Shown piece after piece: positions 7,977 to 63,491 of a DNA stretch of 64,000 nt. Position 1 is the stretch's first letter, and the number at the start of each line of letters is the position of its first letter. The translations under genes were made by a program, and so were the position numbers. Source of the DNA: Phaeospirillum sp. (lineage in GTDB: Bacteria; Pseudomonadota; Alphaproteobacteria; Rhodospirillales; Magnetospirillaceae); the NCBI GenBank assembly GCA_030651575.1, contig JAUSFB010000027.1:186001-250000 (forward strand), read 5' to 3'. The notes under the pieces were generated by a model, which did not search any database, had not been told where the DNA came from, and saw nothing but the letters and a program-made list of their open reading frames with translations.

Positions 7977-8066
7977 CCCCCATTCCCGCAGCCACCAGAA
8001 GCCCGGCATTCTGCACAAGAATCAGAATAATGTAAGCTTCATGAATCGGGAGGCGCGGCGCAGGGC

Positions 8067-35404: not shown

Positions 35405-35480
35405 GCCGGCGTAGCTCAGTTGGTAGAGCAGCGCATTCGTAATGCGCGGGTCGGGAGTTCGAGTCTCTTCGCCGGCACCA
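35405..35480 (+). tRNA. tRNA-Thr(CGT)
   Basis: A complete 76-base tRNA with encoded CCA. Acceptor stem GCCGGCG pairs with CGCCGGC, the D arm has GCTCAGTTGGTAGAGC, the anticodon arm is GCGCA-TTCGTAA-TGCGC with anticodon CGT (threonine, codon ACG), and the T loop is TTCGAGT. The 3' half is the insertion site of the element to its right and is repeated at 49275-49326. Confidence 0.95.
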
Positions 35481-49274: not shown

Positions 49275-49326
49275 GCGCATTCGTAATGCGCGGGCCGAGG
49301 GTTCGAATCCTTTCGCCGGCACCATT
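49275..49326 (+). repeat. attR: right end of element 1 (partial tRNA-Thr)
   Basis: A 52-bp copy of the tRNA-Thr 3' half with six differences from attL, all in the variable and T arms. Its T stem (GAGGG with CCTTT) would still pair, so the sequence comes from a related tRNA gene, not from random decay. It lacks the D arm and 5' acceptor strand and is not a tRNA gene. Confidence 0.85.
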
Positions 49327-49459: not shown

Positions 49460-50824
49460 ATGGGCCGACCGTCAAAACAGGACTATCGCTATCACGACGA
49501 CGGGAACGTGGCCCTGTATCGCCGCCCTAACAGCGCCATGTGGTACGCACGCTGCAAGCTGGAGGACGGCACCGCCCTCAATCCGTTCAGCACCGGCACC
49601 GAGGACGAAGCCGAGGCGGTCAAGGCCGCGAGGAAGCGGACCAGGTTCGCCCAGGTGGATCAGGAACGCGGCCTCGACCCCGGCGGCAAGACCTTCGCCT
49701 TCATCGCCGAGCAATGGCTGAAGATGATGCGCAAGGAGGTCGAGAAAAAGATTTCGACCAAGGCCAAGGTCGATGCCTACGAGGCCATCACGCGCCGCTA
49801 CCACATCCCATATTTCAACAAGACCAAGATCACCGAGATCACGCCCAAATCGCTGGCCGCCTACGAGACGTGGCGGGCCGAGTACTGGACCTCCGGTCCC
49901 GGCGCGGTGGCCGAGTTCGAGACCATCACCCGCAAGGACGGCAAGACCTATAAGCGCAAGACCAAGCGGGTGGCGCGCGGCAAGATGGATGCCGAGGACA
50001 CGGTGCTGCGGCAAATCTTCAAATTTGCGGTCAAGGAAGAATACCTGCCGGTGGCCCGCATGCCGACCATCGGCGGCAAGAAGCAGGTGGGCAACGGCAC
50101 CCAATCGAACCGCCGCCCGGCCTTCACCAAGGAACAGGCGGGCAAGCTGTTGGATTACGACGCCAACGCCTTCTACCCGATCACCGCCAAGATGGATGCG
50201 GCGACCGTGGCGCGGCTGGAAGATGACCGCATGGTGTTCAAGGCGTGGCTGGCGTTGATGCTGGGCACCGGCATCCGGCCCGGCAAGGAGCATCACGGCA
50301 TCAAGTGGAAGCACTTCGAGCAGCACGACGACCAGAACGGCAAGAACCACCTGTTCCTGACCGTCCAGAAGGACACCAAGACGGGATCGCGCACCGTCCA
50401 TGTCGATGACGAGGCCTATGGCAAGTTCCTCGCCCCCTACAAGGCGTTCCCCAACCGGGACAGCGAGATCTTCATTCAGGACGAGGATGGCAATCCAGTC
50501 TATGGCACGCGGTTCAATGCCCCCGACGATTACGTGTTCTGCGACCAGGAAACCGGCAAACCGATCCTGCGCTTCGACCGCCAGTTCCACACCATGCTGC
50601 GCAACCTCAAGATGGAGCACGACGACAACGGCGACGCCTTCACGCCGTATTCATTGCGCCATACCTGGGCCACGTTGAAGCTGAACGCCGGAATGGATGT
50701 GCGGTTGGTGGCGCTCAATCTCGGCACCAGTCCCGAAATGGTCCACCGCCATTACGGCCACGACAACACCAAGAGCCGGGCATCGGAGTTCGCCGATGTG
50801 TGGCTGAGCAAGGAGGAGGAATGA
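49460..50824 (+). CDS. Tyrosine recombinase (integrase of island 2)
   Basis: A 454-aa phage-type integrase. N-terminal arm-binding region (VALYRRPNSAMWYARCKLED), SAM-like domain (FIAEQWLKMMRKEVEKKI), catalytic domain with LMLGTGIRPGKEHHG (Arg), PYSLRHTWATLKL (Arg-His) and MVHRHYGHDNTKS carrying the second His and a Tyr. It is unlike integrase 1 in sequence, so the two elements are distinct. It begins 134 bases after attR of element 1, the place expected for a tRNA-targeting integrase. Confidence 0.9.
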   Translation: MGRPSKQDYRYHDDGNVALYRRPNSAMWYARCKLEDGTALNPFSTGTEDEAEAVKAARKRTRFAQVDQERGLDPGGKTFAFIAEQWLKMMRKEVEKKISTKAKVDAYEAITRRYHIPYFNKTKITEITPKSLAAYETWRAEYWTSGPGAVAEFETITRKDGKTYKRKTKRVARGKMDAEDTVLRQIFKFAVKEEYLPVARMPTIGGKKQVGNGTQSNRRPAFTKEQAGKLLDYDANAFYPITAKMDAATVARLEDDRMVFKAWLALMLGTGIRPGKEHHGIKWKHFEQHDDQNGKNHLFLTVQKDTKTGSRTVHVDDEAYGKFLAPYKAFPNRDSEIFIQDEDGNPVYGTRFNAPDDYVFCDQETGKPILRFDRQFHTMLRNLKMEHDDNGDAFTPYSLRHTWATLKLNAGMDVRLVALNLGTSPEMVHRHYGHDNTKSRASEFADVWLSKEEE

Positions 50825-50831
50825 GGGCGGA

Positions 50832-50856
50832 GCGAGCTTACATCACGTAAGCTCGC
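50832..50856. repeat. CTTAC-N5-GTAAG dyad, left of the STAND gene
   Basis: GCGAGCTTAC-ATCAC-GTAAGCTCGC is a perfect ten-base-arm dyad eight bases after the integrase stop. A relative, CTTAC-ATCAT-GTAAG followed by CTCGTGCC, occurs at 55817-55838 on the other side of the STAND gene; the two share the core and the right flank. It could also serve as a terminator of the integrase. Confidence 0.6.
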
Positions 50857-50865
50857 GCCCAGGGT

Positions 50866-50880
50866 GTTACCGGCGGTAAC
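50866..50880. repeat. GTTACC-N3-GGTAAC palindrome, copy 1
   Basis: GTTACC-GGC-GGTAAC, nine bases after the preceding dyad. One of four such 15-mers in island 2 (others at 56443, 60680 and 63429), all outside genes. Confidence 0.6.
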
Positions 50881-51119
50881 AGGCTTTAGCGTCTGAACGT
50901 CGGCCTTGTGCCAGAATAAGGTTTCTCGCCCCCTGTCCGAATAGGGTCGCAAGCATTCATTTCCAGTCGGCTGGCCGATTGGCCGCATTGCGGGACCTCT
51001 CAGCCAGCCGCAACTGCAAAGGCCATGGCCGCAGCGCGACGTCTGCCAACACGATGGGCGGGAAGCGGATTGATGTGGGCACAGGATCGCGCGATAGCGA
51101 TCGCCCGCCATCGCAGCCC

Positions 51120-51379: not shown

Positions 51380-54300
51380 ATGCAGACTCAAATGTCAGTT
51401 ATCGTTGCAAAATTTCTCGAAGACATTCGGAAAAACCACGGCATTAAGGTCGAGATCCGCGATCCGCTGACCATGGGGAAGTCTGGCGCCTTTGTGGCGA
51501 TTGTGGACTGTTCAGGCAATCTCGACGGGATACACGTTCTGAAGGTTGACGTCCTTCCGATCAATTGGGTCGGGGAGGAAGCTCGACATGAAAAGGCTAT
51601 TGCCGAAGGGGCATTTTCTGGAAAAATTCCGCAAATCGCATTAAGTGTTAAGTCAGAACATCACTATTGCATGTTGATCAAGTTGGCGGGGCGCTCGCTG
51701 ATTAAGTGGCACCCCCTGATCGCCGATCACGGCTTGTTCCGCTCCGCTTACGCTGAATTTTCCAAGATTGCCTGGACACCCAACCTGTTCACGCTTGGGC
51801 CGCAGCAGTCGGCGCGTGAAGTGATTGCAACCCTTATGGGGTACAAGCTGTTTGAGCAGGAGGGCGGACGCATCGATAGGAATGTTTCGGAGTTTATTTC
51901 GGCCGAAATCCTTGTTGCCCCGATGTTCCTGTTCCAGGGGCAGGTGCTTCCAAATCCGGTCTTCTTCGCCAAATCAGGCCCTGACAAACCGCAGCTTCGT
52001 CCGCTCCTTGGTCCAACCCATGGCGATTGCCATAGCCAAAACCTGTTTGTCAAAGCGGGCGAGGATGCCTGCGTCCACGATATAAACCTAATTGATTTTG
52101 CAACCTATCAGTCAAGCTTGCCGTTGTTTTTCGATCATGCCTACCTTGAGCTGGCAACACTTCTACGCAGGCTCGATAGTCTTGGAAGCGTACGCTGGTA
52201 TAAGTTGGTGGAAGCGCTGGCCACGGACAACTCGGTGACGGCCGTCGATCCGAGCGAGCGCGGTTGGCTTGAGGACATTCTTAAGGCCCGCGAAGTGGCA
52301 AAGGAGCTTGCGTTTAAACAATACGATGACCGGCAGGATGACCTGCAGCTACAAATGCTTCTGGCGCAAGTCGCGGCCGGGCTGGCCTTTTTACACAAAG
52401 TTCCACGGGCAGGCAGCGGATCGGCGGGGCTTACGCCGGAGCAGTATAGCCAAAGCTTCATTTGGTCTACGGTCTTCCTCAAACGGATCCTTTCTCTGGT
52501 CAATATGGATTTGGCTGGAATTTTTCCCGGAGAAACAGCTATCCCTTGGCCGTCCAGGTTTGCCAAGGGTCCACGATCCGTGGACCAATCCTCTGACGTT
52601 TCCCTACGTCTCGAAGACTCCGGCTTCAATATCCTCGTTCTCGGCAATGACCTTGAGGCGCTTCCGCCGGAGATCGCGAGCGCGCCGTGGACCTTCATTA
52701 TCGATTTCCGAACGGCACCACCGGCAGAAGATGAGCGAGAGGCGAGCCCAAGAATGTTCCGGCAGTCCTGGCCCGGACAACCCGCCCCTGACCTGAAGAT
52801 TCTACACCGTGGTAGCATCTGGTATTTCGCCAACGGTAGAAGCGATATTTCAGATGCTTCGCCAACATCCACCACCCTAGAGTGGAAACGAAAGTACAAG
52901 CGTTTTATCGAGGATCTTCTTCACAAGATTTCAGAATTTCATTCGCCAAAGAATGTGCGCTGCTTTGTTATAGCGGATGGACTTTCCAACGATATTGTTG
53001 GGAAGGTGGTCGAGGCTATCGACACCGAATTCCATGAGACGCTCGCCCCGGTAGTGGTCACCAATATCAATGGCGTTCTACCGAACATCGATGGGGTGGA
53101 ACTGCGGCAACTTGATTTTGATACGATCGTGACCGGGCTCGGTGGTGAGCGCGCCGCGACGTTGTCGAACACCGTGGCTCTTCTGCCACAACGTTCGAAG
53201 GAAGGGATAAGCCTGGTGGCGATCCCCGATGGCATCCTGTCGCGTGTCAGTCGGGATCTGACCGTTATCTACCGCGCAAGGGCGCATAGTGCTCCAGAGG
53301 GACGATCGTTCGGGATTGATTTTCGCCGCGGCATGCCGATTGAGTGGGCTGAGCTAGCTCAGCACCTTGATGTGCCGCGCGAACGAGCCTTCGAGGCCCA
53401 TCGTAAGCAGATCGAAGAAGCAATCGAAGCGTCTGGCAATAGGACCGTGAACTTGCTGCATGAGCCGAGCGCGGGTGGCACTACGCTAGCGCGCCGACTT
53501 GCATGGACATTTATGGAACGCGTGCCGACGGTGATCGTGGATCAAGTCAGCAGCGATACATCCTCGTATCTGAGAGATATCTTCCAACTCTCCTCGCTCC
53601 CGCTGCTCGTGGTCCTAGAATCATCCATTCTCACCGAGAGTGAGCGCGAAGGTCTCCTCCAGCAACTTCGGGAAGACAACACAAGAGCGGTGTTCTTGTG
53701 GGTTTCTCGGGCGGTCAACAAGCACGGAGCCGACAACGTTCTGTCCAGTGAATTGAGCGATGACGAAACGCAGATGTTCCTTGACGCTTATCTCGACCAG
53801 GTCTCCGATCAATCTCGGCAGAGCCAGCTTCGTCAGTTAGCCAGCCCATCTACGCCGCGCGAACGACGTAACCCGTTCTTCTTTGGCCTGACGGCGTTCG
53901 GTGAGGGGTTTGTCGGCGTCGAGAAACTCGTCGAAGACGTCTTGATCGGCGCGCGTAGCAAGATAGCAAAAGAGCTCCTGACCGATCTGGCCTTCGTGAG
54001 CCTCTATAACAGCGAAGGGTTTCCTGCGAACGAATTCGACGAGCTTTGCGACACTCTCAACGACGGAAATGCGCCGGTCGAGGACGGGTCGCTATTTATC
54101 CTGCGTACGGACGGTCATGTTCGGGTATCCCACACACTCCTGGCGCGGTTAGTTCTAGCCAAGCTCGCCCGAAAAGAAGAGCAATGGCGCGCCGATATTT
54201 CGTTGTTCTCGATGATGCTTATTTCTCATCTAAACAAGCTCCGTAACAGCGCGGCCGATCGAGTTCAAAATTTGGTCAAGGCCTTATTTATCACGCGCGA

Positions 54301-55723
54301 CATCGAGAGCGCGATCCAGGCTGACGTGGATGCCTCCGTTGGTGGCATACCCAATCAGCGGAGGTTCTCGCTGCTGATCAGCGATCTCGGCAATGCGGAA
54401 TTGGCACGCAGCGTCTTCCGCCGAATCACACAGATCTGGCCGAGAGAACCCCATTATGCGGCGCACTTGGCACGCCACCTAATGTACGAAGACCCTAAAG
54501 ATATAAACGGAGCGGTGCTACAGGCCGAGTTTGCTGAAAAATTGCCCGAGGGGGAGGGGGACGCTGCACTGGTTCACGTCTCAGGTATGGCCCATCGGCT
54601 CCGCATGGAACAGCTTCTCAAGGAGGCGGCAATCGAGGGCCGCGCGCTCACCGAGATCGAACCCGAAGTCCTGGCAGATTATGAGATGGCGGTTGATTAT
54701 TTCGATCGGTCCACACAACTCAAACCGTCAAATGAGCACGGTCTGGTCGCAACCATTCAAACCGTCTCAAGTCTACTTCGGCATTCGATTAGGCTTTCCG
54801 GCACGAACAATTTGGCCGAATTCCTGCGCTCCCGGTCTACATCGCCGTACATGCAGGCCCTCGCCCTCGCAGAAGAGAATATCGATTTAATGCGCAACCG
54901 TCCACGAATCTCGATTCGGGCGGAAAAGACCATTGCTGAGTGGAACAACGTCTACGGAAATACCGAAAGAGTCGTGTCTGATCTCAGGGCATTGGCTGCG
55001 CGCCATGAGGATATCGGTGTTCGGCGCGCGCTATGTGCCGCGATCGTCGCGCGCTCGAAGCACATGTGGGGCTCGATGAGCCAGGGAGACCTTCGTACCG
55101 TGGCCGTGATGATGGAAAAGAACATCCTTCAGCAGGGCGTCCAGGATGCTGATATTCGGCGCTGGTTCTCGGCCTATCGACACCTGAACAACTTCGACGA
55201 GACGGTTGCCATCCAGCGCTTCATCGATTGGCACGGATTAAATCCAAAATCGGTCGAACCGCCCTACTACCTAGTTGCCCTGAACTTCCTTCGCTGGCTC
55301 TCTTCTCGGGGTTCCCGCGAAGCCCTGGCCGGCGAAATCAATCGCTGGATCGGAATCTGCCAAAATAACCATCCTTATGGCAGCCGATCGTGGTCCTACG
55401 AGTGGCTCGAAAAGGCAGGAGACAAATGCGGGCTGGCGCATTTCAGAAATGACTTGGATTTCGATCCACCGTCCATGATCAAGAAACAAGATCTTGGCAA
55501 ACTTGAAGCACGGCTGGAGCGTGTGGAGGGGACGCTACGTGGGTACCGGGGCCCGCAACTTGCTATCCTCGATCTTGGGTCGAACCTTTTTGCCAAGATC
55601 ATCCCTCTTGAGCGCTTGTCGAAAGATGATGAAGGCAAGCGCATTTCGGCGTTCTTGTCGTTTTCTTACGACGGGTTAATCGGTTGGGACCCGAGACTGA
55701 TCGGACGTTACCAGCGGCAATGA
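51380..55723 (+). CDS. APH-like kinase fused to SAMD9-like STAND NTPase, 1447 aa
   Basis: Residues about 1-380 look like an aminoglycoside-phosphotransferase/kinase fold: a strand with Lys55 (GIHVLKVDV), catalytic loop HGDCHSQN (214-221) and metal-binding Asp239 in LIDFA. Residues about 415-660 show blocks seen before SAMD9-like NTPases (APWTFIIDFRT, FGIDFRRGMPIEWAELAQHL). A P-loop of the GGTT type follows (HEPSAGGTTLARRLAW, 694-709), a Walker-B-like strand (SSLPLLVVLESS), and a helical, repeat-like C-terminus (about 950-1400). STAND NTPases are sensor switches of antiviral or cell-death response; here a small-molecule or protein kinase would be the effector. Single gene, flanked by related dyads. 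Confidence 0.72.
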   Translation: MQTQMSVIVAKFLEDIRKNHGIKVEIRDPLTMGKSGAFVAIVDCSGNLDGIHVLKVDVLPINWVGEEARHEKAIAEGAFSGKIPQIALSVKSEHHYCMLIKLAGRSLIKWHPLIADHGLFRSAYAEFSKIAWTPNLFTLGPQQSAREVIATLMGYKLFEQEGGRIDRNVSEFISAEILVAPMFLFQGQVLPNPVFFAKSGPDKPQLRPLLGPTHGDCHSQNLFVKAGEDACVHDINLIDFATYQSSLPLFFDHAYLELATLLRRLDSLGSVRWYKLVEALATDNSVTAVDPSERGWLEDILKAREVAKELAFKQYDDRQDDLQLQMLLAQVAAGLAFLHKVPRAGSGSAGLTPEQYSQSFIWSTVFLKRILSLVNMDLAGIFPGETAIPWPSRFAKGPRSVDQSSDVSLRLEDSGFNILVLGNDLEALPPEIASAPWTFIIDFRTAPPAEDEREASPRMFRQSWPGQPAPDLKILHRGSIWYFANGRSDISDASPTSTTLEWKRKYKRFIEDLLHKISEFHSPKNVRCFVIADGLSNDIVGKVVEAIDTEFHETLAPVVVTNINGVLPNIDGVELRQLDFDTIVTGLGGERAATLSNTVALLPQRSKEGISLVAIPDGILSRVSRDLTVIYRARAHSAPEGRSFGIDFRRGMPIEWAELAQHLDVPRERAFEAHRKQIEEAIEASGNRTVNLLHEPSAGGTTLARRLAWTFMERVPTVIVDQVSSDTSSYLRDIFQLSSLPLLVVLESSILTESEREGLLQQLREDNTRAVFLWVSRAVNKHGADNVLSSELSDDETQMFLDAYLDQVSDQSRQSQLRQLASPSTPRERRNPFFFGLTAFGEGFVGVEKLVEDVLIGARSKIAKELLTDLAFVSLYNSEGFPANEFDELCDTLNDGNAPVEDGSLFILRTDGHVRVSHTLLARLVLAKLARKEEQWRADISLFSMMLISHLNKLRNSAADRVQNLVKALFITRDIESAIQADVDASVGGIPNQRRFSLLISDLGNAELARSVFRRITQIWPREPHYAAHLARHLMYEDPKDINGAVLQAEFAEKLPEGEGDAALVHVSGMAHRLRMEQLLKEAAIEGRALTEIEPEVLADYEMAVDYFDRSTQLKPSNEHGLVATIQTVSSLLRHSIRLSGTNNLAEFLRSRSTSPYMQALALAEENIDLMRNRPRISIRAEKTIAEWNNVYGNTERVVSDLRALAARHEDIGVRRALCAAIVARSKHMWGSMSQGDLRTVAVMMEKNILQQGVQDADIRRWFSAYRHLNNFDETVAIQRFIDWHGLNPKSVEPPYYLVALNFLRWLSSRGSREALAGEINRWIGICQNNHPYGSRSWSYEWLEKAGDKCGLAHFRNDLDFDPPSMIKKQDLGKLEARLERVEGTLRGYRGPQLAILDLGSNLFAKIIPLERLSKDDEGKRISAFLSFSYDGLIGWDPRLIGRYQRQ

Positions 55724-55816
55724 CCGGCAGGGCGCTAACCTGCCGTGAAGAACGGGCGTCGCCAAGGCCGCCTACAGGAGCGTCCGCCGCCTCAGTCCGA
55801 CGCCCCATTCCCTGAA

Positions 55817-55838
55817 CTTACATCATGTAAGCTCGTGC
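55817..55838. repeat. CTTAC-N5-GTAAG dyad, right of the STAND gene
   Basis: CTTAC-ATCAT-GTAAG followed by CTCGTGCC. It matches the left dyad (50837-50858) except for C to T changes, but its outer left arm is lost. The pair brackets the STAND gene in direct orientation. Confidence 0.55.
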
Positions 55839-55996: not shown

Positions 55997-56440
55997 ATGT
56001 CCACCCTGACCAAGCTGAAGCTCGCCAATGCCTCGCGCAAGCCCGTCGAGGAAACCCCGCAGGAACGGATGCGCTCGCGCATGACCGAACACCTGACCGA
56101 GCAGTTGGCGATGGCCACCGCCCTCGTCGAAGGTCGCCCCTATGCGGCCACCCGCACCGTGACCAAGAAGAACGACGATGGCAGCACGGTGACCGTCGAA
56201 CGCGACAAGCGCCTGCGCCCCTGGTACTGGCACGACCTGAGCGGCAAGTGGTTCCTCGAACTCCGCTACGCCAACACCGTGCTGAGCCTCGCCAAGGACC
56301 AGAACGCCATTGAGATCGGGACCAAGGACAAGCTCGTCCCGACGATCCAGACGGTGATCGAAGCCGTGAAGGCGGGCGAGCTGGATGCCGCGATGAATGC
56401 GGCGCTTGCTTCGCGCAAGAAGCCCGGCAAGGCCGCCTGA
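55997..56440 (+). CDS. DUF6641 family protein
   Basis: A 147-aa basic protein: MSTLTKLKLANASRKPVEE at the start, a helical region, RLRPWYWHDLSGKWFLELRY, AIEIGTKDKLVPTIQTVIE and a KPGKAA tail. This fits the DUF6641 family often found in islands and prophages; function unknown. Ribosome site GGAGAA. It lies alone between the STAND and ABC-3C modules and ends three bases before a palindrome. Confidence 0.65.
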   Translation: MSTLTKLKLANASRKPVEETPQERMRSRMTEHLTEQLAMATALVEGRPYAATRTVTKKNDDGSTVTVERDKRLRPWYWHDLSGKWFLELRYANTVLSLAKDQNAIEIGTKDKLVPTIQTVIEAVKAGELDAAMNAALASRKKPGKAA

Positions 56441-56442
56441 CT

Positions 56443-56457
56443 GTTACCTCAGGTAAC
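56443..56457. repeat. GTTACC-N3-GGTAAC palindrome, copy 2
   Basis: GTTACC-TCA-GGTAAC, two bases after the stop of the DUF6641 gene and twelve bases before the 32-bp repeat. Too short for a terminator. Confidence 0.6.
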
Positions 56458-56469
56458 GCTTTCCTGCCG

Positions 56470-56501
56470 TGCGTGGCGACATGCACGGCAGAGCCATGAT
56501 G
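56470..56501 (+). repeat. 32-bp direct repeat, left of ABC-3C operon
   Basis: The 32 bases starting TGCGTGGCGACATGCACGGC and ending GAGCCATGATG are exactly repeated at 60154-60185. The two copies bracket the three-gene operon, which starts 150 bases after this one. Confidence 0.85.
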
Positions 56502-56594: not shown

Positions 56595-56623
56595 TTGACA
56601 ATTTTCAGTAGAGCGCCTGGAAT
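56595..56623 (+). promoter_or_regulatory. Promoter of the ABC-3C operon
   Basis: A perfect -35 TTGACA (56595-56600), 17-base spacer and TGGAAT as -10 (56618-56623). Transcription would start near 56630, upstream of the ATG at 56652, which argues against the earlier in-frame TTG and ATG codons. Confidence 0.5.
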
Positions 56624-56651
56624 GCCCGCCTCACTTGAGGCTCCAGGCAGC

Positions 56652-57650
56652 ATGAGACATTACCACCGCGACATTCTGGCCCTCGACGATGACGAACTGG
56701 AACTTTTCGTCTTTGACTGGATGCGTCAGAAAGAGAAGGGATACGTAAAAGTCGAGCGTTTCTCGGGGTCCAGTGACATGGGGCGTGATGTCGTCGGGTT
56801 TCTGAGCGACGGACTCCATGAGGGGCCTTGGCACAACTATCAGTGCAAGCAGTTGGGGCGAACATTGCAGCCAGGAAACGTGATCCTGGAGCTGGGCAAA
56901 ATTCTTTATTTCAGTTTTACGGGCGCGTTCACCACTCCTTCTGCATACACGTTCATTGCGCCAAAAGGGACTAGCCGCAAGGCCGAGCAGCTCATTTTCA
57001 ACCCAAGCCAACTCAAGGAAGCGTTGTTAACCGGATGGGAAGATCAGTGTGCGCGCAAGATCATAAAGAATGTAGTTATCCCGCTTGATGCCCCTTTAAG
57101 GACGCACATCGAAGCATTCGACTTTGCCGCCGTGAGCCGCCAAGGCATCAACAACATCCTTGCGGATTCGTTTATAAACCCCGTGCTGGTGCAGTGGTTC
57201 GGAGCCGACCCAGGCCCCCCGCCAAAAGGGACAGTGCCGCCCGAGGTGCTTGCCACTGAAACGGAATATGTCGGCCAGCTCTTGACGTCTTATGGCGAAC
57301 GGGATGGTTGCGAGTACTCCTGTTGCGCCGACGTTGCGGACCACCCTGAACACGTCGAACACCTAAGCTACCAGCGTGAACGCTTTTTTCAGGCCGATAG
57401 CTTTAATCGGCACTTCCGAGATAACACTATGCCCGTTGAATTGGCAGATCTTCACAATGACATCTATCATGACACGGTCCAGACGCATCGAGCTAAACAC
57501 GAAGATTCTCTGGCCCGCGTTGATGCTGTCATGGATCGAGCGGCGGCAGCCACGCCGGGTGGACCCTTGGCTAAATATGCCCGTGTCCCGATTAAGCAGG
57601 GCATTTGCCACCACTTCGTAAACGATGGTCGGTGGAAATGGCAGAAATAG
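56652..57650 (+). CDS. ABC-3C effector: restriction-endonuclease-like protein
   Basis: 332 aa from ATG 56652 (GAGG upstream). The N-terminal third looks like a PD-(D/E)xK nuclease: ERFSGSSDMGRDVVGF with Asp42 and Asp46, then YQCKQLG with Lys66. The C-terminal part (VQWFGADPGPPPKGTVPP, YQRERFFQADSFNRHFRD, HAKHEDS-like helices) fits the ABC-three-component C-terminal region that joins effectors to the ATPase. It should cut nucleic acid when released by the partner ABC protein. Its stop lies inside the next gene. Confidence 0.75.
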   Translation: MRHYHRDILALDDDELELFVFDWMRQKEKGYVKVERFSGSSDMGRDVVGFLSDGLHEGPWHNYQCKQLGRTLQPGNVILELGKILYFSFTGAFTTPSAYTFIAPKGTSRKAEQLIFNPSQLKEALLTGWEDQCARKIIKNVVIPLDAPLRTHIEAFDFAAVSRQGINNILADSFINPVLVQWFGADPGPPPKGTVPPEVLATETEYVGQLLTSYGERDGCEYSCCADVADHPEHVEHLSYQRERFFQADSFNRHFRDNTMPVELADLHNDIYHDTVQTHRAKHEDSLARVDAVMDRAAAATPGGPLAKYARVPIKQGICHHFVNDGRWKWQK

Positions 57651-58129
57651 CCGAGGACCTCGCCGGAGCAACGGCAAAACTGTTCAATAGTCCGCTTGAG
57701 ACCGGATTACGAGCCGTCTTCATTTTGGAAGCCGTCTATCCGCTGACCATTGATCTCTCGCGGCTCACTTGGCTTGACCACCTCGTAGTTCATACTGGCG
57801 ACATAAATGGGCCTCAAAGCCTCCATGTCCCTGTGCCCGGTCGGAACGGTGAGCTGCTCGTGCGGCGCCGTCTAATTGAAGAGAGCCTCACGCTGATGAG
57901 GCGTCTCCACCTTGTAGAGGCTGTTGCAGAAGCCAGTGGTGTTGCCTACCGGGCAAGTGATGAGGCCCCAGCACTAATTATGCTCATGCGCAGCAAATAT
58001 TCGACGGAGTTAAAAAAACGAGCAGAGTGGCTCGTTACGCATATTGATATCGACCATCCGGCGATGATGGCGAAGTTGATAAATCCGAGCATTAATCGAT
58101 GGTTTGTGGAGTTCCTGGATGATGTGTAG
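57638..58129 (+). CDS. ABC-3C middle component
   Basis: 163 aa from ATG 57638, overlapping the effector gene by 13 bases. FNSPLETGLRAVFILEAVYP, LSRLTWLDHLVVHTGDINGP, SLHVPVPGRNGELLVRRRL and LTLMRRLHLVE are typical of ABC-3C middle-component type 2 proteins, small helical adaptors. It should bridge the effector and ATPase. An ABC ATPase follows after 17 bases. Confidence 0.8.
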   Translation: MAEIAEDLAGATAKLFNSPLETGLRAVFILEAVYPLTIDLSRLTWLDHLVVHTGDINGPQSLHVPVPGRNGELLVRRRLIEESLTLMRRLHLVEAVAEASGVAYRASDEAPALIMLMRSKYSTELKKRAEWLVTHIDIDHPAMMAKLINPSINRWFVEFLDDV

Positions 58130-58146: not shown

Positions 58147-60012
58147 GTGCGTCCATCGATTAAAATCCGTCACCTAGTTTTTACAGGGCCAGACGTTGAG
58201 CCAGCGCGAATGGACTTTTCATCCAATCTTGCAATGGTCTATGGCGCATCCAATACAGGCAAGTCGTTCGCGGTAAAAGCAATCGATTTCATGCTTGGAG
58301 GATCGACTGCACTGCCAGACATCGGTGAGCGCAATGGCTATGACCGCATTTGGGTTGGAATGTCTGCGGGCGATGATGGCGATATTACCCTTACACGCGC
58401 TATCGCCGGAGGAAGCTTTGAGGTCGCGGGAGGATTGATCACCTCTCATTCTGGACGGCAAAATATGCGGCCTTTGTCTGCGCGTCACGATCCAGACCGA
58501 CCTGATAATGTGTCTCACTACCTTCTTCAATGTGTTGGACTCTCGGGTCAGCAGATTGCTGTCGATGCCAACGGCAAGAAGCGTTACATGAGCTTTCGCG
58601 ACCTAGCCCGCTATTGCGTTACTGATGAAACGTCGATCCAGAGTGAGCAATCTCCGGCCCAAAGTGGCCAACATTTGAGCGCGACACGAGAGCGCAGCGT
58701 TCTGAAGTTATTGCTGACGGGCGTTGACGACGACGCGGTTGTCGAGATTCTTGACCGAAAGACTTTCAGCACATCGAAGACCGCCAAAATTGAGGTGTTT
58801 GACGAAATGCTCGCAAACATCGATGCTGAAATTGAGGGTGATTATCCTGACATTGGTGAATTGCCTGACCAAGAACGTCGTCTAGAGGAGACGTTCATTG
58901 CAGCGCAGGCCGAAGTCGAAACTGCGCAGCATTCAGTCCACAGGCTTTTTGCCAGCAAGAGAAGCGCCGCTAATAGCATAGAAAATCAAGAAACTCGTCT
59001 TTCAGAGATCGACGTAAATTTATCTCGCTTTTCTCAACTCGATGAAATTTATTCCTCCGACATCGATCGCCTTGAAGCGCTCGAAGAGGCGGGGTTCTTA
59101 ATTGGTCTCGGCGGGGCTAAGGACTGCCCATTATGCGGTGCTCAGCCTGAATCCCAGCACCATAATCATACCATTGACGAAGTCTCCCGCGTGCGAGAAG
59201 CCGCCGAGCGTGAGATTGGAAAGATAAACGTGCAACGCGTTGATCTCACTCGGACAGTTGAAGATCTGTGCGTAGAAAGAGTTCGAATTGCAGAACAACT
59301 GCCAGGGAAACGCGAGCGCCTTGAGCAGATTGAGGCTGAGATTAATCGCATAGCACCTGTGGCGCTGGAAGCTCGCCGACAACTTGATGAACTGATGGTG
59401 GCCCGCGACCGCGTCAAACACGGCCTTACACTTATTGAAAGCAGGCAGGCACTCGTCAAAAAGCGTGACGAATTAGCTGCGCTAAAGCCAGCGCGACGAC
59501 AGGAGAAGCCTCAGCTTGGCGTCAGTGGTGTTGTTGCTCACGAATTCGCCCAGACTGTAAGTCGTGTTCTGACCGAATGGCACTTTCCCGGCAACCGGCA
59601 CGTGGCCTGGGATGATGATGCGTATGACCTGCGTATTGATGGTAAACGCCGCCGCGATAATGGCAAGGGCGTCCGTGCCATCACGCATGCGGCATTCAAA
59701 GTGGCGCTATTAATATTTGCGCGAGAGCATGATCTTGCCCACCCAGGCTTCGTCATCCTTGATACGCCATTGCTCACCTATCGTGACCCGATGGCCTCTC
59801 GCGAGGGCGAGCTTACTGCGGACGAGCGCCAAGTGGCCGAGAGTTCGCTTAAAGAGCACTTCTTCCGACATTTGGCTGCAACTAGCAGCATGGGGCAGTT
59901 CATCATCGTCGAGAACGTTGATCCGCCTGCGAACATCCTTGAGATAGGCAACGTTGAGACGTTTTTTGGTGGCCGGAAAGGCGCGCGGTACGGGCTCTTT
60001 CCCCACCGGTAG
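58147..60012 (+). CDS. ABC-3C ATPase (Rad50/SMC-like)
   Basis: 621 aa from GTG 58147 (GAGG upstream). Walker A GASNTGKS (33-40), long coiled coils about 215-450 with CPLCG at 327-331 at the hairpin apex like a zinc hook, a signature-type region NGKGVRAITHAAFKVALLI (505-523) and Walker B FVILDTP (535-541). DUF3732-like layout. In ABC-3C systems this subunit senses nucleic acid or ends and controls the effector. Last gene of the operon, 141 bases before the second 32-bp repeat. Confidence 0.85.
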   Translation: MRPSIKIRHLVFTGPDVEPARMDFSSNLAMVYGASNTGKSFAVKAIDFMLGGSTALPDIGERNGYDRIWVGMSAGDDGDITLTRAIAGGSFEVAGGLITSHSGRQNMRPLSARHDPDRPDNVSHYLLQCVGLSGQQIAVDANGKKRYMSFRDLARYCVTDETSIQSEQSPAQSGQHLSATRERSVLKLLLTGVDDDAVVEILDRKTFSTSKTAKIEVFDEMLANIDAEIEGDYPDIGELPDQERRLEETFIAAQAEVETAQHSVHRLFASKRSAANSIENQETRLSEIDVNLSRFSQLDEIYSSDIDRLEALEEAGFLIGLGGAKDCPLCGAQPESQHHNHTIDEVSRVREAAEREIGKINVQRVDLTRTVEDLCVERVRIAEQLPGKRERLEQIEAEINRIAPVALEARRQLDELMVARDRVKHGLTLIESRQALVKKRDELAALKPARRQEKPQLGVSGVVAHEFAQTVSRVLTEWHFPGNRHVAWDDDAYDLRIDGKRRRDNGKGVRAITHAAFKVALLIFAREHDLAHPGFVILDTPLLTYRDPMASREGELTADERQVAESSLKEHFFRHLAATSSMGQFIIVENVDPPANILEIGNVETFFGGRKGARYGLFPHR

Positions 60013-60105: not shown

Positions 60106-60153
60106 GCGCCAAGCTCAAAGTCGCGTACAAGGCTGCATAGAGTTCAAGGGCCA

Positions 60154-60185
60154 TGCGTGGCGACATGCACGGCAGAGCCATGATG
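60154..60185 (+). repeat. 32-bp direct repeat, right of ABC-3C operon
   Basis: Exact copy of 56470-56501, same orientation. It lies between the ABC ATPase gene and the convergent zinc-binding gene. Confidence 0.85.
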
Positions 60186-60650: not shown

Positions 60651-60679
60651 GGCATTCCGCCGCTTGCGGCTTGCCCCGT

Positions 60680-60694
60680 GTTACCGCCGGTAAC
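60680..60694. repeat. GTTACC-N3-GGTAAC palindrome, copy 3
   Basis: GTTACC-GCC-GGTAAC, identical to copy 4 at 63429. It lies in the gap between two minus-strand small genes. Confidence 0.6.
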
Positions 60695-60748
60695 GCTCCT
60701 TACCCCAACCGGACGAGCGCCCGCTGAACCAGCGGCCATCTCTGGCAT

Positions 60749-63277: not shown

Positions 63278-63428
63278 GCCGCCCTCCACATCCAATTGTA
63301 GCGGACGAGTCTGTTGCATGACCCCGCTTGCGTCAGACTACAAACGCGCAGATGTCTTCGTTATTGTGGGAAACTACGGATTGATGGGCCGCTGCCGGGC
63401 CAGAAAGTGGGCGGCGTTGGCTCCTACT

Positions 63429-63443
63429 GTTACCGCCGGTAAC
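63429..63443. repeat. GTTACC-N3-GGTAAC palindrome, copy 4
   Basis: GTTACC-GCC-GGTAAC, identical to copy 3 and about 105 bases before the end of the beta-barrel gene. Confidence 0.6.
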
Positions 63444-63491
63444 GGCCTCGCCGCGAATCCCTCCGCAGACCGGGGTCCGGGGCGCTCCAGC

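What the first reader, a model, noticed from the sequence alone, without database searches (positions are those of the whole stretch)
51380..55723. Kinase-STAND fusion: APH-like kinase joined to a SAMD9-like NTPase
The 1447-aa protein has an aminoglycoside-phosphotransferase-like catalytic loop (HGDCHSQN, LIDFA) at its N-terminus and a GGTT-type P-loop (PSAGGTTLARR) with the upstream blocks of SAMD9-like STAND proteins, followed by helical repeats. Bacterial relatives usually carry SIR2, nuclease or protease effectors; a small-molecule/protein kinase as effector is unusual. Next to an integrase and an ABC-3C system, an antiviral role is plausible. This is my strongest candidate for an undescribed system.
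Basis: partly seen in the sequence, partly recalled or inferred. Interest (0 to 1): 0.8.

Follow-up and report, generated by a model that had tools for sequence, protein, structure and literature searches.

The report
Kinase-armed bacterial SAMD9-like immune sensor
This bacterial gene, on what is likely a mobile DNA element and next to a known phage-defence system, encodes a protein predicted to fold like the human antiviral protein SAMD9 but with a kinase-type domain at its front end, where other bacterial relatives carry a nuclease-type domain; it is likely a phage sensor that would stop infection by phosphorylating a still unknown target.

Summary

A kinase is not unusual here: of 116 hits to the STAND part of a distant member, 80 carry this kinase (Pfam TCAD9), 27 AlbA_2 in the same slot, none both. 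Bacterial SAMD9-family proteins with an N-terminal kinase were described computationally in 2017 (as Ser/Thr kinases). Eight paper searches listed no functional study.

The gene lies in a 27-kb element at tRNA-Thr, beside Lamassu; defence neighbours at 3 of 10 loci read. Best reading: antiphage STAND receptor whose kinase is the effector; target unknown.

The parts
51380..55723 (+). kinase-STAND gene (SAMD9-family protein with APH-like kinase), 1447 aa
51380..52534 (+). residues 1-385: APH/choline-kinase-fold domain (Pfam TCAD9 relative)
51542..51544 (+). Lys55, putative ATP-binding lysine (K in 114 of 118 rows)
52019..52042 (+). catalytic loop HGDCHSQN, residues 214-221 (H214, D216, N221 in 118 of 118 rows)
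52094..52096 (+). Asp239, putative metal-binding Asp of LIDFA (118 of 118 rows)
52616..53293 (+). residues 413-638: SIR2-like domain of the SAMD9 type; TTNxD in 0 of 159 rows, GAGxS-like in 3 of 159
53294..54268 (+). residues 639-963: STAND NTPase module
53459..53491 (+). degenerate P-loop HEPSAGGTTLA, residues 694-704 (Lys replaced by Gly)
54269..55369 (+). TPR-like helical repeats, about residues 964-1330
55376..55702 (+). residues 1333-1441: C-terminal OB-type domain, aligned with the SAMD9 C terminus
49460..50824 (+). tyrosine integrase of the element that carries the gene
49275..49326 (+). repeat of the tRNA-Thr 3' end, left end of the element; a further copy lies beyond the window (contig C68 262263-262318, would be 76263-76318)
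55997..56440 (+). DUF6641 gene between the kinase-STAND gene and Lamassu
56595..57650 (+). LmuA (Lamassu; ABC-3C CTD6)
57605..58129 (+). LmuC (Lamassu; ABC-3C MC2)
58147..60012 (+). LmuB (Lamassu SMC-like ATPase)
50833..50854 (.). palindromic repeat, left of the kinase-STAND gene (partner at 55814-55835)
55814..55835 (.). palindromic repeat, right of the kinase-STAND gene

Best explanation
The gene encodes a bacterial member of the SAMD9 family of STAND proteins, predicted to carry an APH/choline-kinase-type domain at its N terminus, and it is likely an antiphage receptor in which that kinase would be the effector. Inferred working: at rest the C-terminal TPR and OB domains hold the protein inactive; a phage product or an RNA bound by that end would release the STAND module; the module, which lacks the P-loop lysine and so may bind rather than hydrolyse ATP, would assemble; the assembled kinases would then transfer phosphate to a target needed for phage growth, halting infection or the cell. 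The SIR2-like domain would be a structural part, not an NADase. Shown here: domain order, predicted folds, conservation of the kinase and P-loop residues, kinase or AlbA_2 on the same STAND body in different relatives, integrase and tRNA-end repeats around the gene, Lamassu beside it. Inferred: activation, assembly, effector role and target; of targets I favour a component of translation.
Against: No activity of any kind is shown. Defence neighbours were found at 3 of 10 loci. At L001, L003, L004, L005, L006 and L007 I scanned 4, 1, 2, 3, 1 and 1 neighbouring ORFs with PADLOC: one L001 ORF matches helicases of many systems (best DpdF, E 2.6e-19), which I read as a generic helicase, another L001 ORF a CARF model (E 4e-6), one L005 ORF HTH models (best E 3e-9), one L007 ORF a subtilase model (E 3e-10); the rest nothing. 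L002 was not scanned. The L026 match covers residues 7-273 of a 1105-aa neighbour. The set came from a query of the kinase type and only 7993 candidates were scored, so 80:27 is not a census. The protein has no match in PADLOC or NCBIfam at E 0.1 and none in the phage records. APH-fold kinases mostly act on small molecules, so a translation target is a guess.
Confidence: 0.6

Rival explanations
1. The kinase is a regulator, not the effector: it senses a ligand or phosphorylates the protein itself, and another part (SIR2-like domain or a partner protein) does the damage.
For: Kinases commonly serve as regulatory modules (recalled); the SIR2-like domain is found in 159 of 163 collected proteins by my profile.
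Against: The SIR2-like domain lacks the NAD motifs: TTNxD in 0 of 159, GAGxS-like in 3 of 159. The same slot holds AlbA_2 in 27 of 116 hits and never both, which is what an exchangeable effector looks like. The ORF lists of the 10 loci show no obviously shared neighbour (judged by eye, not by clustering).
Confidence: 0.2
2. It is not a defence protein but a general stress or development signalling protein (as suggested for bacterial members in 2017), and its place beside Lamassu is incidental cargo of the element.
For: Many relatives are in Streptomyces and Micromonospora; 6 of 10 loci read showed no convincing defence neighbour among those scanned, 1 was not scanned.
Against: Patchy spread (1 of 55 family genomes; 6 of 398 in the phylum sample with any match, 3 of them full-length and one of these the own genome), likely mobile element, R-M, Lamassu or a defence candidate beside it at 3 of 10 loci, and a body shared with an antiviral protein.
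Confidence: 0.15
3. It is a small-molecule kinase (resistance or metabolism enzyme) with a STAND regulator.
For: APH, EcKL and Kdo kinase profiles match weakly in it or its relatives; choline and aminoglycoside kinases are among the nearest folds.
Against: Kinase, SIR2-like, STAND and OB parts occur in this order in 123 of 163 collected proteins (the collection started from kinase-type queries); I know of no resistance enzyme built so (recalled).
Confidence: 0.05

Closest known systems
Bacterial branch of the SAMD9 family with N-terminal kinase (Mekhedov, Makarova, Koonin 2017, PMC5445408)
   Same: SIR2-like, GGT P-loop NTPase, TPR, OB in this order, AlbA_2 absent, kinase at the N terminus, family noted in actinomycetes.
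   Different: The paper calls the kinase Ser/Thr; here, and in 5 kinase-type relatives that I scanned (among them Frankia, Streptomyces, Micromonospora), the N-terminal match is TCAD9 (above its cut-off in 1 of 5), partly with APH-, Kdo- or ABC1-type kinases, and no Pkinase match at E 0.1. The paper's figure and supplements could not be read, so that the two sets are the same is likely, not proven.
Human SAMD9 (PDB 9zjr and others)
   Same: Residues 405-1441 align with SAMD9 389-1589 by fold; sequence homology; lysine-less P-loop.
   Different: No SAM and no AlbA_2 domain; kinase instead.
Bacterial AlbA_2-SAMD9-like proteins (mostly about 1210 aa, e.g. P0149, Acidovorax)
   Same: Same SIR2-like, STAND and OB parts.
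   Different: SLFN_AlbA_2 domain in the kinase's place.
Avs5 (SIR2-STAND antiphage protein; PMC12931631, passages)
   Different: Avs5 has active SIR2 motifs and a canonical GPAGSGKT Walker A; no kinase.
APH-type kinase effectors in ternary conflict systems (Kaur et al. 2020, PMC7159879, and 2021, PMC8195603; passages)
   Same: APH-superfamily kinase named as a predicted conflict effector ('a few examples' in 2020).
   Different: Those sit in multi-gene vWA-MoxR systems; here the kinase is fused to a SAMD9-type STAND. That Pfam's TCAD9 is that domain is inferred from the Pfam name; the passages held contain no 'TCAD'.

Membership tests
SAMD9 family | Detectable sequence homology to SAMD9 over the core | tested here: met
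   Profile vs PDB, E 1.8e-23, three co-linear stretches, the third weak on its own
SAMD9 family | Order SIR2-like, P-loop NTPase, TPR, OB | tested here: met
   Models and fold alignments
SAMD9 family | P-loop with Gly for Lys (GGT/S) and conserved upstream His | tested here: met
   HEPSAGGTT; K in 0 of 161, His694 in 157 of 161
SAMD9 family | AlbA_2 domain (core, but the 2017 paper says it is lost in some members and missing, with a kinase at the N terminus, in many bacterial ones, so not required) | tested here: not met
   No PF04326 match; kinase fold there instead
SAMD9 family | Antiviral activity | not testable with these tools
   -
APH/choline-kinase superfamily | Kinase fold | tested here: met
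APH/choline-kinase superfamily | Catalytic Lys, HGDxxxxN, second Asp | tested here: met
   K55, H214-D216-N221, D239
APH/choline-kinase superfamily | Phosphotransfer activity | not testable with these tools
   -
Pfam TCAD9 (PF19974) | Score above the curated cut-off of 40 bits | tested here: inconclusive
   29.3 bits here, but 52.3, 47.7, 43.4 and 42.7 in L007, L026, L027 and P0120 with the same architecture
Avs5 | NAD-hydrolysing SIR2 motifs GAGxS and TTNxD | tested here: not met
   TTNxD 0 of 159 rows, GAGxS-like 3 of 159
Avs5 | Canonical Walker A lysine | tested here: not met
   K in 0 of 161
vWA-MoxR ternary conflict system | vWA and MoxR genes beside it | tested here: not met
   No such match among the 9 other window proteins scanned with Pfam; genes at other loci were not all scanned

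The most novel reading that the evidence does not exclude
Bacterial SAMD9-type receptors stop phage by phosphorylation: on one and the same STAND body, evolution swaps an anticodon-nuclease-type domain for an APH-type kinase, and both hit the same target class, so the kinase shuts down translation by phosphorylating tRNA or another part of the translation machinery. That would be a new effector chemistry for immune STAND proteins and would root the human SAMD9 pathway in a family of exchangeable translation blockers.
Probability: 0.15. Interest if true: 0.85.

Novelty: new member of a known kind. Interest (0 to 1): 0.5.

Why it matters
SAMD9 and SAMD9L are human antiviral and disease proteins whose bacterial relatives are little tested. 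This family gives a single-gene bacterial counterpart in which the effector appears to have been exchanged, so that what the shared body does (sensing, switching without a P-loop lysine) can be separated from what the effector does. If the kinase proves to be the effector, phosphorylation by an APH-fold enzyme joins nucleases, NADases and proteases as an immune output, and its target becomes a direct question.

Tried and rejected
Rejected: SIR2-like domain as NADase effector (motifs missing). Rejected: a kinase being rare in this family. Rejected: identity with Avs5 (P-loop lysine and SIR2 motifs differ). Led nowhere: single-sequence search of the PDB (0 hits up to E 1); NCBIfam and PADLOC for this protein; phage records; plasmids (1 record, an 834-aa Ruegeria 'phosphotransferase' sharing part of the kinase domain); the same integrase in 376 genomes of the class at E 1e-40 (only the window's own); Pfam and PADLOC for the 1946-aa ORF of L006. 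Paper searches whose listings showed no functional study of a kinase-SAMD9 bacterial protein: (open-licence PMC only; up to 20 papers listed per search, often of many more). The STAND tree (quick method, midpoint root, several long branches that meet) leaves the deeper order unsure and does not say whether kinase or AlbA_2 came first. Rows dropped before counts: for kinase residues, 11 of 129 domain rows that span under 280 residues; for the tree, 95 rows were used, taking every second kinase-type row from P0046 on and every second AlbA_2 row, and leaving out five truncated rows; A2 and A3 hold 38 and 40 rows, the window's own included. A regular expression for the kinase motif in an earlier script failed on 14 of 127 proteins; 5 of those hold only a short part of the domain, and the other 9 keep H, D, N and D in the alignment, the pattern having been too strict.
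Full report
What was checked. The ORF at 51380-55723 (+) is real and 1447 aa long. By itself it scores low in Pfam: TCAD9 at residues 183-289 (E 6.6e-7, 29.3 bits, cut-off 40), nSTAND_NTPase7 at the P-loop (E 4.7e-4), EcKL and APH weakly; nothing in NCBIfam or PADLOC at E 0.1. Of the 36 members of alignment A1, 24 match nSTAND_NTPase7, 22 TCAD9, 19 EcKL and 18 nSTAND_NTPase5 at E 0.01. It has many homologues: 37 hits with the whole protein and 38 with residues 630-1447, in both the protein itself included and some hits truncated, from 75% down to 23% identity, with named ones in Martelella, Bradyrhizobium, Sorangium, Pseudodesulfovibrio and Desulfatibacillum. Two further loci with about 25% and 22% identity keep the same order in Ciceribacter (L006) and Acetatifactor (L007); in L007 TCAD9 passes its cut-off (52.3 bits). 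P0036 (23% identity) has the SAMD9-like body without the kinase.

Effector exchange. Searching with the STAND part (residues 640-1500) of a distant relative, P0046, gave 116 proteins, P0046 included: 80 with TCAD9, 27 with AlbA_2 (PF04326), 9 with neither by the precomputed Pfam column, none with both and none with Pkinase PF00069 (counted by hand from the table). The query was itself of the kinase type and candidates were capped at 7993, so this is not a census. By my own profiles 123 of 163 collected proteins have kinase, SIR2-like, STAND and OB in this order. On a quick tree of 95 STAND domains the 14 AlbA_2 rows used form one group (SH-aLRT 99) that lies next to the 35-row group of this protein (the fork joining them has support 91); the root is not known. 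Human SAMD9's tRNA-cutting activity is described in PMC13245274 (passages); that it resides in the AlbA_2/Schlafen-like domain is recalled, and fits Pfam's name SLFN_AlbA_2. A domain slot that holds either a nuclease-type domain or an intact kinase is best read as the effector slot; this is inference.

What is already known. Mekhedov et al. 2017 state that many bacterial SAMD9-family members lack AlbA_2 and have an N-terminal Ser/Thr protein kinase. Five kinase-type relatives that I scanned, among them Frankia, Streptomyces and Micromonospora proteins, match TCAD9 (1 of 5 above the cut-off), some also Kdo, APH or ABC1 kinases, and not Pkinase at E 0.1, so the 2017 kinase and this one are likely the same thing under a coarser name; the figure and supplements could not be read. 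Kaur et al. 2020 mention a few active APH-superfamily kinases as effectors in ternary conflict systems (passages), and the 2021 follow-up again lists small-molecule kinases (passages). Avs5 is a tested bacterial STAND protein that its authors liken to SAMD9, with an active SIR2 and a canonical Walker A (passages). [quoted passage not shown] Eight paper searches (listings) showed no functional study of a kinase-SAMD9 bacterial protein.

Surroundings. The 3' end of tRNA-Thr (35405-35480) is repeated at 49275-49326 (88% over 52 bp) and again beyond the window at contig C68 262263-262318 (96% over 56 bp to the second copy, which also lists four weaker matches on other contigs). So two elements probably stand in tandem at the tRNA: one of about 14 kb with a Rep3 initiator and an integrase, and one of about 27 kb that starts with the integrase at 49460-50824 and carries the kinase-STAND gene, DUF6641 and a complete Lamassu operon. 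The gene is present once in its genome, in 1 of 55 genomes of the family (the own one), in 2 of 385 of the class at E 0.001 (the own one, and one that shares only the kinase part) and in 6 of 398 of the phylum (3 full-length, own included). Ten loci with the gene were read (window, L001-L007, L026, L027). A defence system or candidate lies next to it in 3: Lamassu in the window; type I restriction genes with the kinase-STAND gene 82 bp behind HsdR in L027; and, 230 bp in front of it in L026, a 1105-aa protein whose first 273 residues match PADLOC candidate PDC-M54A. For L001, L003, L004, L005, L006 and L007 the scanned neighbours gave nothing that I find convincing (one L001 ORF matches helicases of many systems, best E 2.6e-19), and L002 was not scanned.

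Verdict. The anatomy is firm (about 0.95). An antiphage role is likely (about 0.7), the kinase as effector more likely than not (about 0.75), and the whole statement about 0.6. The target is open; translation is my preferred guess because of the AlbA_2 exchange and the OB end. As a kind it is known from sequence analysis; as a mechanism it is untested.

Noticed in passing
window 50865-50881, 56442-56458, 60679-60695, 63428-63444: The palindrome TGTTACCNNNGGTAAC occurs exactly at 4 places in the 4.23-Mb genome, all within 13 kb of this element, between the integrase, the kinase-STAND gene with DUF6641, the Lamassu operon and the genes after it; three more places elsewhere have one mismatch. It could mark cargo boundaries or be a regulator's site.
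   Followed up: partly
window 50833-50854 and 55814-55835: A palindromic repeat of about 22 bp flanks the kinase-STAND gene on both sides (no match in 100 shuffles).
   Followed up: partly
window 56466-56501 and 60150-60185: A 36-bp direct repeat (97%) flanks the Lamassu operon, as if the operon had been exchanged as a unit.
   Followed up: no
window 35405-35480, 49275-49326, and contig C68 262263-262318 outside the window: Two probable tandem integrative elements at tRNA-Thr, bounded by copies of its 3' end.
   Followed up: partly
L011:11893-14397 (Ruegeria plasmid), L010:1324-4026: The same kinase domain occurs without the STAND part, on proteins of 834 and 900 aa with TPR matches further on (weak in the first).
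   Followed up: partly
P0037 (2360 aa): TCAD9 kinase fused to an AAA_16-type NTPase, a different body (Pfam column).
   Followed up: no
P0088, P0092, P0093, P0095, P0097, P0101, P0103, P0109, P0112, P0121: Some members carry extra PF12872, PF00076 or PF00313 domains (OST-HTH, RRM and cold-shock; names recalled), which hints at RNA as a ligand (Pfam column).
   Followed up: no
P0036: A SAMD9-like STAND protein with neither kinase nor AlbA_2 match and an unidentified N-terminal part.
   Followed up: no
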